From Henriciella sp. (GTDB lineage: Bacteria > Pseudomonadota > Alphaproteobacteria > Caulobacterales > Hyphomonadaceae): DNA of 55,539 nt. Shown here one piece after another: positions 20,056-24,250 of this stretch. Every line of letters begins with the position of its first letter. The first letter of the stretch is position 1. The notes under the pieces were generated by a model. It was given only the letters and a program-made list of their open reading frames with translations, was not told the origin of the DNA and did no database searches. The position numbers were made by a program, and so were the translations under genes. Location: the NCBI GenBank assembly GCA_021776655.1, contig JAJFFK010000044.1:1-55539 (forward strand), read 5' to 3'.

Positions 20056-20084
20056 GGAATAAATTTCCGCTGCTACCGTAGTCT
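20056..20084 (+). promoter_or_regulatory. Predicted ECF promoter: GGAAT-N16-CGTAGTCT
   Basis: The -35-like GGAAT (20056-20060), a 16-base spacer and the -10-like CGTAGTCT (20077-20084) match the promoter candidates at 22878-22907 (plus) and 22828-22856 (minus). An inverted repeat, ATTCCGggcctgCGGAAT, overlaps its -35. It lies 26 bases before the ATG of the exported Arg/Asp-rich protein. Confidence 0.7.
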
Positions 20085-20110
20085 TCCTATCGCAACCATA
20101 GGAGGCGTTG

Positions 20111-20647
20111 ATGAAAACCACGACAATCGGCCTGGGGACTTTATATGTTGCCCTCGCTACAGCCGCGACCTTGTGCCTGGCGCAAACCGCAACGGCCCAA
20201 ACCCAAACGGCGAGCGTTGATGCTGCCCGGCCCGCTATTGTGGCCGATATGGTCAACGACCATCGCCCGCATGATGGACCACCACACGGTGTCCCGCCAG
20301 AGCTGCACCGCAAAGTCGTGCACCTGTATAAACGAATCCACAACGCCTATCCCGATGCCTCGCGCAAGCGCATCCTCTACAAGATCGCTCAAGAGTTGGG
20401 CATATCACCGAGGCGGTTGTGGAATGCCTATCATTCAGGCGGCGGGGGGACAAACGGCCCGGTCGATATCCTTCCTGCGGATCGGGTTACAGACCGCCGC
20501 CTGTCTGATCGCGCCGTCTCTGATCGAGCAACAGACAGATCTCGGCACCGGATCACAGATCGTCCGCGATCTGCAGACCGCGTGCGGGTCAGGCCCGATC
20601 GTCCGGTTCGGGATCGCCCGCAGCGGGCCCGGCCGGGACGTGACTAA
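20111..20647 (+). CDS. Exported Arg/Asp-rich low-complexity protein
   Basis: The 178-residue protein has a signal peptide (residues 1-30, ending TATAQ). A compact central region has a helix-turn-helix-like stretch (RILYKIAQELGISPRRLWNAY, 87-107), and residues about 124-178 are a run of DR-containing repeats (DRVTDRRLSDRAVSDR...). The motif RHRITDRPRSADR is closely matched by RDRIIDRPAADR in the N-terminus of the nearby subtilase. A ggagg site lies five bases before the ATG at 20111. No family is recognised; I infer it belongs to the ECF regulon around it and may be a protease substrate or partner. Confidence 0.75.
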   Translation: MKTTTIGLGTLYVALATAATLCLAQTATAQTQTASVDAARPAIVADMVNDHRPHDGPPHGVPPELHRKVVHLYKRIHNAYPDASRKRILYKIAQELGISPRRLWNAYHSGGGGTNGPVDILPADRVTDRRLSDRAVSDRATDRSRHRITDRPRSADRVRVRPDRPVRDRPQRARPGRD

Positions 20648-20672
20648 GCTCAACCAATAGAGACACGCACAG

Positions 20673-20699
20673 CGGAGAGGACATGTCGTCTTCTCCGCT
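20673..20699 (+). other. Hairpin between the Arg/Asp-rich gene and the barrel gene
   Basis: Inverted repeat gcggaga / tctccgc with a roughly 13-base loop in the 87-base gap. It could be a weak attenuator or an RNA-processing site between two co-directional genes. Confidence 0.45.
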
Positions 20700-20734
20700 C
20701 GTGTCGTATAAGCAAGACAAAGGGAGGCGAAACG

Positions 20735-21514
20735 ATGGGATCGCGAATTTTATTTTTGAGTGCCAGTGCATTTGTACTGGCCGGGCATGCTGGCGCACAG
20801 ACAATGACAGTCTCCGCCGGCGCAGAATACACAACTGGCGACTATGGCGGCGGCAGCGACACAGACGTGCTCTATGCACCTTTCTCGCTTGGCATCGCAG
20901 GCGACAATTGGTCGGCGCGTGCAATTTTGCCTTATCTTCGCCTATCTGGCCCAGGCGTCTTTCTCGGCGAAGATGTTCCGATTGTGCGCGATCCTGCGAT
21001 GCCAATTCGAGGTGCCTCCGAGAACGTGTCTGGTTTGGGAGATCTCAGTCTTTCACTGACAAGAACGACACAATTAGACGAGGCCGGGGTGTGGGAGCTG
21101 GACATTACCGGGCGCGTAAAAGTGCCAACCGCTGACCAGGATAAGGGCCTTGGTACCGGCGAAACAGACTATTCTCTCGCCGGTGATCTGGTGCACAATA
21201 CCGGCGCTTGGAGCCTGTTTGCAGGCGGCGGATACCGCATAAATGGCGACCCCGACACCCGCGACCTCAACAATATTGCGTTTGGGTCTCTGGGGGCAGT
21301 GCGCTATACAGATAGCGGCTCAAGTTGGGGCTTTGCGTATGACTATAGCCAGGCCGTCAGCGACGGTGTTGACGAGGCCCACGAGCTGTCCTCATGGCTA
21401 AGCTTTGGCCTGTCAGACAGCGCCCGATTGCAGGTCTATGGCCTGACTGGACTGAGCAATGGCGGACCTGATTATGGCGGCGGCGCACGTCTGATTCTGA
21501 CATTCAAACGCTAG
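20735..21514 (+). CDS. Predicted outer-membrane beta-barrel protein
   Basis: The 259-residue protein has a signal peptide ending AGHAGAQ. Alternating amphipathic strands follow, with Gly/Tyr/aromatic turns (GAEYTTGDYGGGSDTDVLYAPFSLGIAG, SWGFAYDYSQAVSDG, LSSWLSFGLSDSARLQVYGLTGLSNGG), ending in LILTFKR. This pattern fits a small barrel or transporter-like outer-membrane protein. GGGAGG lies seven bases before the ATG. It is probably co-transcribed with the exported Arg/Asp-rich gene from the promoter at 20056. The stop codon lies in a palindrome shared with the convergent anti-sigma gene. Confidence 0.75.
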   Translation: MGSRILFLSASAFVLAGHAGAQTMTVSAGAEYTTGDYGGGSDTDVLYAPFSLGIAGDNWSARAILPYLRLSGPGVFLGEDVPIVRDPAMPIRGASENVSGLGDLSLSLTRTTQLDEAGVWELDITGRVKVPTADQDKGLGTGETDYSLAGDLVHNTGAWSLFAGGGYRINGDPDTRDLNNIAFGSLGAVRYTDSGSSWGFAYDYSQAVSDGVDEAHELSSWLSFGLSDSARLQVYGLTGLSNGGPDYGGGARLILTFKR

Positions 21515-21525
21515 GGTCGACCCTA
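21511..21525. repeat. Palindrome TAGGGTCGACCCTA holding both stop codons
   Basis: The 14-base perfect palindrome (21512-21525) begins with the TAG stop of the barrel gene and ends with the TAG stop of the convergent anti-sigma gene (read on the minus strand). A symmetric structure of this type could be a bidirectional terminator core. Confidence 0.75.
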
Positions 21526-22296
21526 ATCGCTTTTGCGCGTCCAACCTGCTTCGATCAATTGCGCTTCCTGGCGCTCATTGAAGCGGGTTGTGACGCCCAA
21601 TTCGGCGCTCGCCACAGCAACCGGGTCGCCGCCACCAGCCGCTTGAAACCGATCCGGCGATGACGCCTCGGCCAAGATGACCAAGCGCCAGGACGCATCT
21701 TCGCGACATGCAATCCCCGTTTGCTGCTCTAGCCGAAACTGTCGACACAGCGATCCATCACCCGCTTCAAAGCTGGCCTCGATTAGTACCCGCCGGGTAT
21801 CATCACCGGAAGGCAACGTATCCAACGCCTTGACCAACAGGTGCCCCGGCTCAGCGGAACCATTGTCGGCAAGTTGCAAAAAGGTATCTGGTCCGCTGCG
21901 CCCAGGCAGGACATAGCCCGCCAACAGGCCCATCGCGGCGCACGCAGCAACCAGCGCCGGCCAAATGGTTTGCGGCCAAGTCAGCGCCGCTGCGCCGCCA
22001 CGTGATCGCGTGGGCATTGGCACAATAACCGGATCAGTTGGTTCGCGGCCTTGCGGCTGCCCGATCTCAGCGTGCGGTGTTTCAATCTCCCCTATCAATG
22101 CGGCAAGACCCTGCGACATAGGTGCCGCTTCGACATCTTCAAAAGCCGCCTGCGCCAATGCTCGGCTCGCCTGCAATTTCGCGATAATATCGGCCAGCGC
22201 CGGGTCAGCTTTAATCGCCTCCTCAATCTCCAGCGCGGCTGCATCATCCAACTCGCCATCGGCATAGGCCATCAAATCCAGATCGGTCGGTCTCAT
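21523..22296 (-). CDS. Anti-sigma factor (single-pass, DUF-type periplasmic domain)
   Basis: The 257-residue anti-sigma factor has a cytoplasmic N-terminal helical domain (DLDLMAYADGELDDAAALEIEEAIKADPALADIIAKL), the anti-sigma ZAS-like fold without the canonical His-x3-Cys-x2-Cys zinc site. A membrane helix lies at about 108-130 (IWPALVAACAAMGLLAGYVLP). A periplasmic domain of about 125 residues follows, with two Cys (SLCRQF, IACRED) that could form a disulfide. It is coupled to the sigma gene by an ATGA overlap, so the two form one regulatory pair. A sensor role for the periplasmic domain is inferred. Confidence 0.85.
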   Translation of the reverse strand: MRPTDLDLMAYADGELDDAAALEIEEAIKADPALADIIAKLQASRALAQAAFEDVEAAPMSQGLAALIGEIETPHAEIGQPQGREPTDPVIVPMPTRSRGGAAALTWPQTIWPALVAACAAMGLLAGYVLPGRSGPDTFLQLADNGSAEPGHLLVKALDTLPSGDDTRRVLIEASFEAGDGSLCRQFRLEQQTGIACREDASWRLVILAEASSPDRFQAAGGGDPVAVASAELGVTTRFNERQEAQLIEAGWTRKSD

Positions 22297-22817
22297 TGCA
22301 ATGTCCCTTCCGGCGCGCTCGGTTCTAAAACGCCGATGAGTTTCTGCCTGGCTCGATATAATCGGCTCATCACTGTCCCGACAGGCAGGTCAAGCACATT
22401 AGCCGCGTCCTGATAGCTTTCGCCATTGACCAGGATCAGGCCGACAACCGCACGCTGATCATCTGGCAAGGCTTCAATTGCGATACGCGCCTTGGCTGAC
22501 ATGTCCAACACTTCCAGTCGCTCGCGACCATCCTCGCCGACAAGGCTGTAGGCGGCACTGATATCGTCATGCGGACCCTGTCTTTCGGTTTTTCTCATCT
22601 GATCAATCCAATGGTTCTGAATGATTTTGAACACCCAGCTTTCCAGCCGATAAGCTGGATTATATGAAGCAGCGCGCACCAATGCCCGCTCCAGTCCCGC
22701 TTGCACCAAATCATCGGCATCCGCCGGATTTCTGGCAAGCACCAGCGCAAACCGCCGGAACTTCGGCAGATGCTCAACAAGGCCTTCGCGGACCAGAAGT
22801 TCCGGGCTGTTCGCCAT
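22293..22817 (-). CDS. ECF-type sigma-70 factor
   Basis: The 174-residue sigma factor has region 2 at about 15-80 (LPKFRRFALVLARNPADADDLVQAGLERAL..YNPAYRLESWVFKIIQNHWIDQMRKTERQ) and region 4 at about 115-170 (IEALPDDQRAVVGLILVNGESYQDAANVLDLPVGTVMSRLYRARQKL). It has no regions 1 or 3. ATG at 22817 is chosen because the protein begins there. It lacks a ribosome site, consistent with near-leaderless transcription from the -10 at 22828-22835. A TTG at 22859 is an alternative. The overlap with the anti-sigma gene is ATGA. Confidence 0.92.
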   Translation of the reverse strand: MANSPELLVREGLVEHLPKFRRFALVLARNPADADDLVQAGLERALVRAASYNPAYRLESWVFKIIQNHWIDQMRKTERQGPHDDISAAYSLVGEDGRERLEVLDMSAKARIAIEALPDDQRAVVGLILVNGESYQDAANVLDLPVGTVMSRLYRARQKLIGVLEPSAPEGTLQ

Positions 22818-22827
22818 GATTACAAGA

Positions 22828-22856
22828 GGACTACGTACGGCACGCCAATTTCTTCC
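22828..22856 (-). promoter_or_regulatory. Predicted ECF promoter of the sigma/anti-sigma operon
   Basis: On the minus strand GGAAG (22852-22856), a 16-base spacer and CGTAGTCC (22828-22835) lie 10 bases before the sigma ATG. This matches the motif of the other two promoters and implies autoregulation and a very short or absent leader. Confidence 0.65.
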
Positions 22857-22877
22857 CAAGTTTTTTCATCTCTTCGT

Positions 22878-22907
22878 GGAATGATACGCTATACTAAGGC
22901 GTAGTCT
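22878..22907 (+). promoter_or_regulatory. Predicted ECF promoter of the subtilase gene
   Basis: GGAAT (22878-22882), a 17-base spacer and CGTAGTCT (22900-22907), followed by the 'aagga' ribosome site at 22921-22925. It is the mirror partner of the sigma promoter in the 110-base divergent gap. Confidence 0.7.
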
Positions 22908-22933
22908 CTGTGCTGGCAAAAAGGATCATGAGT

Positions 22934-24250
22934 ATGACTAGGATGCAAGGCACACTGATCTGTATCATTTTGCTGGGGTTGCAAGGCCTGTCAGAAGTCG
23001 CCGCGCAGACCTCAGATCGCGTCCACCGCGTCGATCGACTTGACCGGGCTCGCGAACGGTCCGTCACACGCGACCGGATCATTGACAGACCCGCAGCCGA
23101 CCGACGCGTGGCAACCCGGATTATCGACGAACCAGAGAGTGATGCGCGCAAGGACGAAATTGAGACTGCCACACCAGATGCTGACACGCAGGTGCGCCCA
23201 ACCATCATTCAGGATGAGCGCGGCGACCGCGTTCGGCGCGGCGAAATGCTGGCGCTGAACCCCTCGCTGCAAGCCCTGGATACTCTGAGCCGCCTCGGTT
23301 TACGCCAGGCAAACCAGCGCGACCTGGGCAATGGCGATCATCTTCACATTTTTCGCGCAGACCGCTCTGACACTTTGTACGAGGCCATCGCTCAAGTGCG
23401 CAGGCTTGATCCAGCCGGTGTCTATACCACGAACCACGTTTTCAGCCCCAGCCAAGTTGGATCAGACACGACAGGTGCCCAGCCTCCAACCTCACCCGAA
23501 AGCGCGGATCAGGACTGTGATATCGGTGTGATTGATGGCCCGATAGATACAAGTCTACCTCTGCTCACTCAGCCGATTGTTGCGATGCGCGCGTTTGATA
23601 CAGCCCCACAAGGGTCAAGCGCGCATGGCACCGCCGTTGCGGCCCGGCTGATCCTTGCTGCAAAGGGGTTTGCGCCTCACACCGATCTTAGAATTTGCGC
23701 TGCAAATGTGTTTACGACAGATCTCCCAGGGTCTGTCGCGGCCGACACGCTCGCTGCCGCAATTGGCTGGCAACAACAACAGGGCGCGGTGATTGTGAAT
23801 ATCAGTTTGGCAGGCCCGGATAATGAAATTGTCGCTTATATGGTTGCCCGGTACTTGCGCGGTAATCGGCTTATGGTGGCAGCTGCCGGCAATGGCGGTC
23901 AGCTTAGCCGAAACATCTATCCCGCCGCCTATGACGGCGTCATTGGCGTCACTGCAATAGATGATAACGGGCAAGTCTATCCACTCGCCACGCGCGGACG
24001 TCATGTCGACCTGGCCGCGATTGGGGTTGATCTCGATTTCTCTATGATGGGCATAGACCAGCCTCTATCGGGCACGTCTTTTGCAGCGCCCGTGATCACC
24101 GCCTGGCTGGCCACCAAAGGGCAAAGCGGCGCTGACCTGGGCGCAATCCTAACCGATCTGGGCCCTTCTGGACATGATGACACATACGGCGCGGGTGCCT
24201 TGTTTGAGCAAGCCGATGCACAAATCCAACTGGTTGCCGTCAAGCCATAG
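22934..24250 (+). CDS. Subtilase (S8) family serine protease
   Basis: About 438 residues. A signal peptide (1-25) is followed by an Arg/Asp-rich segment (28-66) matching the exported protein upstream, and the catalytic domain is at about 195-435. The triad is D201 (GVIDGPID), H231 (AHGTAVA) and S382 (GTSFAAP); N320 (AAAGNGG) is the oxyanion residue. ATG at 22934 is preferred for spacing from 'aagga' (22921-22925); ATG at 22928 and GTG at 22910 are alternatives. Its domain order, exported with all catalytic residues, fits a periplasmic or secreted protease controlled by the adjacent sigma factor. Confidence 0.88.
   Translation: MTRMQGTLICIILLGLQGLSEVAAQTSDRVHRVDRLDRARERSVTRDRIIDRPAADRRVATRIIDEPESDARKDEIETATPDADTQVRPTIIQDERGDRVRRGEMLALNPSLQALDTLSRLGLRQANQRDLGNGDHLHIFRADRSDTLYEAIAQVRRLDPAGVYTTNHVFSPSQVGSDTTGAQPPTSPESADQDCDIGVIDGPIDTSLPLLTQPIVAMRAFDTAPQGSSAHGTAVAARLILAAKGFAPHTDLRICAANVFTTDLPGSVAADTLAAAIGWQQQQGAVIVNISLAGPDNEIVAYMVARYLRGNRLMVAAAGNGGQLSRNIYPAAYDGVIGVTAIDDNGQVYPLATRGRHVDLAAIGVDLDFSMMGIDQPLSGTSFAAPVITAWLATKGQSGADLGAILTDLGPSGHDDTYGAGALFEQADAQIQLVAVKP

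What the first reader, a model, noticed from the sequence alone, without database searches (positions are those of the whole stretch)
20056..24250. Self-contained ECF sigma regulon with an exported protease, a barrel protein and an Arg/Asp-rich protein
Seen: sigma and anti-sigma genes overlap (ATGA). Within 2 kb on each side lie an exported Arg/Asp-rich protein, an outer-membrane-type barrel protein and a subtilase with an intact triad. Three promoter-like sites with the same motif GGAA(T/G)-N16-17-CGTAGTC(T/C) precede the sigma operon, the subtilase and the Arg/Asp-rich gene. Inferred: the sigma factor drives a closed envelope-response module in which the protease acts on, or with, the other two exported proteins. 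I do not recall such a unit being described.
Basis: partly seen in the sequence, partly recalled or inferred. Interest (0 to 1): 0.85.

Follow-up and report, generated by a model that had tools for sequence, protein, structure and literature searches.

The report
Sigma-factor module with protease and repeat protein
A bacterium carries a small self-switching gene cluster in which a stress-type sigma factor appears to turn on itself, an exported protein-cutting enzyme and an exported highly repetitive protein; the core of it is known from a soil bacterium, but its repeated pairing with repetitive exported proteins may be new.

Summary
Sigma and anti-sigma genes overlap by 4 nt, a subtilase with an intact triad lies divergent, and a barrel-type gene and an exported Arg/Asp-repeat (DR) gene lie beyond the anti-sigma gene. 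One promoter motif precedes sigma, subtilase and DR gene: 3 of its 4 genome hits are here, and 11 of 12 equivalent sites in this and three related genomes match. The core is not new: it resembles group ECF26, as in S. meliloti RpoE6-EcfR6 with a divergent serine protease that rises on RpoE6 overexpression (PMC6180224). Of 80 named loci, 70 hold the subtilase, 64 divergent, with GGAA-CGT promoters far above shuffles. What I found in no paper searched is a third regulon class: exported low-complexity proteins of unlike repeat types (NSSS, DAADEA, QLLGG, RGADDPAGH; DR here), about 17 times denser beside the module than further off, with the promoter in 22 of 80 loci against 0-1 for control motifs. 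Elsewhere the subtilase's own tail is low-complexity. I read this as an auto-amplified envelope response exporting a subtilase with a disordered repeat partner; signal and substrate are unknown. New variant of a known kind.

The parts
20056..20083 (+). ECF26-type promoter of the DR-protein gene, GGAAT-N16-CGTAGTC
   Evidence: kept in G028 and G008, -35 degraded in G015
20111..20647 (+). Exported Arg/Asp-repeat (DR) protein, 178 aa: signal peptide, nearly invariant helical-looking domain (residues about 57-108), DR-repeat C-terminal part (20474-20644)
   Evidence: match in 6 of 105 genomes of the family; no Pfam or NCBIfam hit; best PDB match E 1.6, not meaningful
20671..20699 (+). Stable inverted repeat between DR and barrel genes
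   Evidence: folds in window, L033, L034 and L035 with z -7.1, -5.2, -6.0, -7.3; in the consensus fold 1 of 16 pairs has a change on both sides and 8 are broken in one sequence
20735..21514 (+). Exported barrel-type protein (Phenol_MetA_deg-like), probably co-transcribed with the DR gene
   Evidence: same place in L033-L035
21523..22296 (-). Anti-sigma factor: N-terminal anti-sigma domain, one hydrophobic helix, C-terminal domain (periplasmic by inference) with conserved Cys pair (C184, C197)
22293..22817 (-). ECF sigma factor, ECF26 (RpoE6-like)
22830..22856 (-). Promoter of the sigma/anti-sigma operon, GGAAG-N16-CGTAGT
22878..22906 (+). Promoter of the subtilase gene, GGAAT-N17-CGTAGTC
22928..24250 (+). 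Exported subtilase (peptidase S8): signal peptide, DR-rich tail, propeptide-like region, catalytic domain with intact triad
23012..23137 (+). DR-rich segment directly after the subtilase signal peptide, resembling the DR repeats of 20111-20647
   Evidence: composition similarity 0.95 in the orthologue L117

Best explanation
The locus is an ECF26 (RpoE6-type) sigma/anti-sigma switch with a tiny local regulon. SHOWN by sequence: the sigma operon, a divergent subtilase gene and a gene for an exported low-complexity (here DR-repeat) protein share one promoter type, and this is conserved. INFERRED: the membrane anti-sigma, through a Cys-bearing periplasmic domain, holds sigma until an envelope cue. 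Freed sigma transcribes its own operon (positive feedback), the subtilase zymogen and the low-complexity protein, with the barrel gene by read-through. Both exported products here carry charged repeats of like composition, so the most likely design is a protease working together with a disordered polypeptide in the envelope or outside: the repeats either tether or concentrate the protease or are what it processes. In other lineages the repeat is part of the protease (cis) rather than a separate protein (trans). Step odds: autoregulated regulon 0.9; protease and low-complexity protein act in one process 0.6; the low-complexity protein is a substrate 0.3.
For: (1) 3 of 4 genome hits of the motif lie here, the fourth in a coding frame. 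(2) In 80 named loci the subtilase was found in 70; 62 divergent by the rule, 64 by the laxer rule. In those 64, GGAAN15-19CGT precedes sigma in 45, the subtilase in 40, both in 30; dinucleotide shuffles 6.5, 5.9, 0.5; other regions of the same loci 5.9, 6.5, 0.9. (3) A neighbour-blind motif scan of the 80 loci puts the motif before sigma in 53, the subtilase in 39, and an exported low-complexity gene in 22 loci (25 less 3 whose frame lies in the subtilase gene); six control motifs give 0-1, 0-2, 0-1, from 26-51 hits each against 211. (4) Exported low-complexity frames: 24 in 178 kb beside the module, 5 in 619 kb further off. (5) The S. meliloti and A. tumefaciens plasmid loci hold sigma, anti-sigma, divergent subtilase and an NSSS-repeat exported ORF with a GGAAT-N16-CGTT site in front. 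RpoE6 overexpression raises ecfR6 and the protease (PMC6180224). (6) Tail and partner composition agree better than permuted, one pair per lineage, n=14, p 0.007. (7) The anti-sigma Cys pair is present in 75 of 79 complete proteins (73 by pattern, 2 by eye). All 4 without it are among the 8 from loci where no subtilase was found, none among the 71 others.
Against: No expression data for this organism. A low-complexity gene with the promoter is found in 22 of 80 loci only, 13 of them one Sphingopyxis-type group, and the L176 hit is doubtful; 58 have none by my filter. Of the 24 near frames, one (L130) looks like a membrane protein and two (L132, L181) are second frames over the same gene. The DR protein itself matches in 6 of 105 family genomes, and in one of these (G087) no module gene was found within 16 kb. 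The cis/trans anti-correlation (71 subtilases, p 1.4e-5) weakens to p 0.05, 0.10 and 1.0 when relatives are collapsed to 32, 17 and 4 clusters. The composition test rests mainly on the DR and DAADEA lineages; the NSSS pair tested is poor (0.47), and some tails were cut crudely. The -35/-10 listed for rpoE6 itself in PMC6180224 departs from the consensus. Nothing shows that the protease touches the partner.
Confidence: 0.65

Rival explanations
1. An ordinary RpoE-like envelope-stress regulon: the subtilase is a general quality-control protease like DegP, and the repeat proteins are unrelated passengers.
For: Sigma-controlled exported proteases are classic (DegP under RpoE, PMC8103513 passages); 58 of 80 loci have no repeat partner with the promoter by my filter.
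Against: Repeat-protein frames sit beside the module about 17 times more often per kb than further off and carry its promoter in unlike repeat types. The regulon found by motif is local, 3 promoters in this genome, unlike RpoE.
Confidence: 0.25
2. The subtilase is part of the signalling path: it cuts the periplasmic domain of the anti-sigma (site-1-like), so that its own synthesis closes a positive loop, with the repeats as a decoy that restrains it.
For: The subtilase is the most constant extra neighbour (70 of 80). The 4 anti-sigma proteins with another C-terminal domain and no Cys pair are all from loci where no subtilase was found.
Against: The S. meliloti section read gives no role for the protease in RpoE6 activation (PMC6180224). 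Those 4 loci are related; 4 other loci without a subtilase do match the Cys pattern; for L185 and L159 the upstream flank is short.
Confidence: 0.2
3. The repeat proteins are a secreted or surface material (adhesive, matrix or ion-binding) and the subtilase is its maturation protease; the barrel is its outer-membrane exit or anchor.
For: Repeats of simple composition with signal peptides; barrel profile hits in 11 of 80 loci, two of them with Gly/Ser-rich stretches; DR protein and barrel adjacent in five loci (window, L033, L034, L035, L085).
Against: No secretion machinery recognised in the module; the barrel's family model is a putative transporter-like one; the barrel is absent from most loci.
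Confidence: 0.2
4. The shared motif is chance.
For: GGAA and CGT are short words, and the reversed pattern is commoner in this genome (39 against 4).
Against: Position in front of the same genes in four genomes and in 80 loci against shuffles and control motifs.
Confidence: 0.02

Closest known systems
Sinorhizobium meliloti RpoE6-EcfR6 with serine protease SMa0142 (group ECF26)
   Same: Sigma 44% identical over 152 aa; membrane anti-sigma; divergent S8 protease with low-complexity tail; GGAAT-N16-CGT site before the protease; autoregulation and protease control reported (PMC6180224, passages and section 7)
   Different: No barrel or DR protein seen in the 12 kb fetched; instead an NSSS-repeat exported ORF (my reading; in strain ml47 a hypothetical gene is annotated on the other strand there) and a DUF6065 gene; -10 CGTTC there, CGTAGTC here; rpoE6's own listed promoter departs from the consensus; RpoE6 overexpression raised 40 genes, 27 shared with RpoE2
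S. meliloti RpoE1 and RpoE4 (group ECF26, sulfite response)
   Same: Same sigma group, promoter type and anti-sigma plan (PMC3511301 passages, PMC6180224)
   Different: Targets include sulfite oxidation genes; [quoted passage not shown] no divergent protease is mentioned for them in what I read
ECF54 and ECF282 (proteolysis-regulated ECF groups)
   Same: ECF54 has subtilase genes in its conserved context (PMC8999054 passages)
   Different: Described as lacking an anti-sigma factor, with proteases proposed to act on the sigma factor; here an anti-sigma is present and the protease has a signal peptide
E. coli RpoE-RseA with DegP
   Same: Sigma, membrane anti-sigma, exported protease in the regulon (PMC8103513, passages)
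   Different: Larger, unlinked regulon and a different protease family; RseA is cut by DegS in the passages read
ECF16-type module of Brucella (B0021-B0023)
   Same: An ECF pair beside a gene for a methionine-rich repeat protein (PMC8315932, passages)
   Different: Other sigma group, six-helix NrsF-family anti-sigma, link to HOCl; no protease mentioned in the passages read; the DR and NSSS repeats here contain no Met

Membership tests
ECF sigma group ECF26, RpoE6 branch | Minimal ECF sigma (sigma2 and sigma4) related to a characterised ECF26 member | tested here: met
   Pfam Sigma70_r2 and r4_2; 44% to RpoE6; in the tree it lies in the 71-row part that holds RpoE6 (93/92, midpoint root), not next to it. 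RpoE1, RpoE3 and RpoE4 were not in the tree.
ECF sigma group ECF26, RpoE6 branch | Match to the formal ECF26 profile of the published classification | not testable with these tools
   The classification paper is not held; its models are not among the libraries offered
ECF sigma group ECF26, RpoE6 branch | Anti-sigma downstream with N-terminal anti-sigma domain, transmembrane helix, periplasmic C-terminal domain | tested here: met
   zf-HC2 only below its cut-off, as in the EcfR6 of strain ml47; topology is my reading of the sequence
ECF sigma group ECF26, RpoE6 branch | Divergent serine protease gene | tested here: met
   also in the S. meliloti locus
ECF sigma group ECF26, RpoE6 branch | Promoters with -35 GGAATA and -10 GT | tested here: met
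   GGAATA, GGAATG and GGAAGA with CGTAGT, spacing N16-N17 after GGAAT/G; only one of three is exactly GGAATA
ECF sigma group ECF26, RpoE6 branch | Sigma-dependent transcription of itself and the protease | not testable with these tools
   Reported only for S. meliloti by overexpression (PMC6180224)
Peptidase S8 (subtilase) | Catalytic D, H, S and oxyanion N | tested here: met
   D203, H233, N322, S384 invariant in 14 of 14
Mycosin or QhpE maturation proteases | Score above the curated NCBIfam cut-off | tested here: not met
   76.3 against 278.75 and 56.9 against 165 bits
EcfG / ECF15 general stress sigma | Sequence placement with EcfG-like sigma factors | tested here: inconclusive
   Six rows that I labelled EcfG-like from recall form one branch (100/100) away from the window row, but no call typed them as EcfG

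The most novel reading that the evidence does not exclude
ECF26-subtilase modules are a widespread three-part envelope system whose third part is defined not by sequence but by physics: an exported low-complexity, disordered repeat polypeptide, provided in trans as a co-regulated protein of fast-changing repeat type (DR, NSSS, DAADEA, glycine-rich, RGADDPAGH) or in cis as the N-terminal tail of the subtilase itself, and matched in composition to that tail. The repeat would be the working partner (scaffold, reservoir or controlled substrate) of the protease.
Probability: 0.4. Interest if true: 0.75.

Novelty: new variant of a known kind. Interest (0 to 1): 0.55.

Why it matters
A hidden third component, which annotation can miss (in the S. 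meliloti ml47 record a gene is annotated on the opposite strand there), gives a concrete, testable partner for the protease. If the cis/trans reading holds, it is a case where selection keeps disorder, export and co-regulation while the repeat sequence itself turns over. The symmetric bidirectional promoter of the Sphingopyxis forms is a neat natural design in its own right.

Tried and rejected
Chance motif: rejected. EcfG/general stress: the window row lies apart from six rows I take for EcfG-like from recall; their 15 loci (L018-L032) show no subtilase within about 1.5 kb. Mycosin/QhpE membership of the protease: below cut-offs. Solved relatives of the DR protein: none with a meaningful E-value. 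[quoted passage not shown] The profile search with A1 in 105 family genomes also pulled in more distant sigmas, so I did not use it for counts. Papers looked at in passages and not used further: PMC7406223, PMC7907618, PMC6527743. That the low-complexity partner is not in print rests and on the papers read; the main ECF reclassification paper is not held.

Rows dropped before counts: 16 of 80 loci (no subtilase, or not divergent by its rule). In the count of low-complexity genes, 3 loci whose frame lies in the subtilase gene (L121, L152, L153). In one search, loci without a subtilase or without a recognisable catalytic start (71 of 82 used); its list of loci with a separate partner was compiled by me and includes partners without the promoter. 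In one search, one pair per lineage, lineages assigned by me. In one search, 79 complete anti-sigma proteins of 82 loci. The signal-peptide and low-complexity filters are my own simple rules and differ slightly between calls (entropy limit 2.45 in 65 and 68, 2.62 in 80).
Full report
What is there. The window is the whole of contig C39 of a 2.97 Mb genome in 47 contigs. The nearest named loci are a Hyphomonadaceae MAG (L117, the same contig as G015) and a Henriciella sp. MAG (L118, the same as G008). Between 20056 and 24250 lie, in order: an exported DR-repeat protein (+), a barrel-type exported protein (+), an anti-sigma gene (-), an ECF sigma gene overlapping it by ATGA (-), and a divergent subtilase (+). 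The subtilase keeps D203, H233, N322 and S384, invariant in 14 of 14 aligned homologues. Between signal peptide and propeptide-like region it carries a DR-rich stretch like the C-terminal part of the DR protein, kept in three orthologues.

Promoters. GGAAN16-19CGTAGT occurs 4 times in the genome: before the DR gene, before sigma, before the subtilase, and once inside a coding frame. The reversed control string occurs 39 times, so rarity alone is not the argument. A looser form gives 17 hits, of which only the same three stand before convincing genes. In the three genomes with close orthologues the strict motif recurs before sigma (3 of 3), subtilase (3 of 3) and DR gene (2 of 3). One of the other hits there, in G015, stands before an exported lipoprotein-like ORF, so the regulon may be a little larger in that genome. 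One DR gene (G008) is cut by a contig end, with its start and promoter on another contig. The barrel gene has no such motif and follows the DR gene after a gap that folds into a strong hairpin in all four genomes (z -5.2 to -7.3). I take it as co-transcribed (inference).

How general. Among 30 sigma loci from relatives, 13 have the subtilase within the 1.5 kb flank, 2 end at a contig end, and 15 more distant ones have none. Of these 80, 70 hold the subtilase, 62 divergent by one rule and 64 by a laxer one. GGAAN15-19CGT precedes sigma in 45, the subtilase in 40 and both in 30 of the 64, against shuffle means of 6.5, 5.9 and 0.5. Of 30 loci with both sites, 14 have them overlapping. In 12 Sphingopyxis-type loci and L195 one 32-bp near-palindrome serves both directions, each -10 lying within the other's -35. 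A second, paralogous module (sigma, anti-sigma, subtilase, barrel) lies on contig C27 of the same genome.

What it is. In S. meliloti the RpoE6-EcfR6 pair (group ECF26) stands divergent to a serine protease, an arrangement called widely conserved in that group. RpoE6 overexpression raises ecfR6, the protease and other neighbouring genes; the group consensus is -35 GGAATA, -10 GT; no functional role is defined (PMC6180224, passages and section 7). The promoter listed there for rpoE6 itself departs from that consensus. [quoted passage not shown] I fetched that locus. The sigma is 44% identical over 152 aa, the protease is S8 (strain ml47), and the published protease promoter lies upstream of it. 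In a tree the window sigma lies in the part that holds RpoE6 (71 rows, 93/92, midpoint root). Six rows that I take for EcfG-like form one long branch (100/100), attached in the other part with weak support, so the tree does not prove that the S8-linked sigmas are one clade. So the core is best read as a member of a known kind.

What seems new. Looking for what else shares the promoter, I found genes for exported low-complexity proteins: NSSS repeats (S. meliloti, A. tumefaciens, Thetidibacter, a Hyphomicrobiales MAG), D/DAADEA repeats (Sphingopyxis bauzanensis, Sphingosinicella), RGADDPAGH repeats (Sphingobium), glycine-rich QLLGG proteins (Sphingopyxis and others), and DR repeats here and in another Hyphomonadaceae MAG (L119, the same contig as L085). 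Beside the module there are 24 such frames in 178 kb, against 5 in 619 kb further off; three of the 24 are weak (L130, and second frames in L132 and L181). A neighbour-blind motif scan put such a gene behind the promoter in 22 of 80 loci, 13 of them one Sphingopyxis-type group and one (L176) doubtful; six control motifs gave 0 or 1. The DR genes are not among these 22. Many subtilases without a partner carry the low complexity themselves as poly-Asp, Asp/Gly or similar tails. Of 71, 7 have both, 30 tail only, 24 partner only, 10 neither (entropy cut 2.4, p 1.4e-5). After collapsing relatives the direction stays at 32 clusters (p 0.05) and 17 clusters (p 0.10), and 4 clusters say nothing (p 1.0). 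Tail and partner composition agree better than by permutation, one pair per lineage (14 pairs, p 0.007); the DR and DAADEA lineages carry most of this, and the NSSS pair is poor. I found such partners in none of the papers read, and the literature searches listed none on them by title or abstract start; the main classification paper is not held.

Signal side. The anti-sigma C-terminal domain has two conserved cysteines (CRxF ... C), by pattern in 73 of 79 complete proteins and by eye in 2 more. The 4 without them (L159, L167, L170, L185) are all among the 8 from loci where no subtilase was found. For L185 and L159 the upstream flank is short. This hints that the sensor domain and the protease belong together. 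It does not tell the signal.

Mechanism and limits. I commit to an auto-amplified envelope switch that exports a subtilase together with a disordered repeat partner. The regulon is shown by sequence only. The partnership rests on co-regulation, adjacency and composition, and catalysis on the partner is a guess. The DR protein matches in 6 of 105 family genomes, one of them without module genes nearby; the barrel profile hits 11 of 80 loci.

Noticed in passing
L038 (G000 contig C27, 39000-49022): A second sigma/anti-sigma/subtilase/barrel module in the same genome; a promoter-like site at its sigma gene has -10 CGTTATC instead of CGTAGTC, so the two modules may be insulated by the -10 element.
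   Followed up: partly
L127, L135, L139, L143, L146, L149, L150, L157, L158, L163, L179, L183, L195: Near-palindromic 32-bp bidirectional ECF promoters in which each -10 lies inside the other direction's -35, so that the two directions should exclude each other.
   Followed up: partly
L197 7305-7787 (S. meliloti pSymA); L198 7310-7699: An NSSS-repeat exported ORF with an ECF26-type site in front; in strain ml47 a hypothetical gene is annotated on the other strand in the matching stretch. The published RpoE6 target SMa0146 may be this locus (not checked).
   Followed up: partly
L155, L189, L188; L199 7991-9469: SLC13-type permease genes near the module: with an ECF26-like motif in front in L155, L189 and L188 (family named by eye), and as an annotated neighbour in A. 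tumefaciens pAt (L199).
   Followed up: no
L159, L167, L170, L185: Anti-sigma proteins with a different C-terminal domain, without the Cys pair, in loci where no subtilase was found.
   Followed up: partly
window 20671-20699: Strong hairpin between the DR and barrel genes (z -7.1), also in L033, L034 and L035, without a clear T run; possible attenuator or RNA stabiliser.
   Followed up: partly
L086 (G087 contig C16): A weak DR-protein homologue (E 8.7e-5) with none of the module's genes detected in 16 kb around it.
   Followed up: no
L064 (G015 contig C13), motif at 1501: The module's motif stands before an exported, lipoprotein-like ORF of at least 473 aa in a related genome: a possible further regulon member there.
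   Followed up: no
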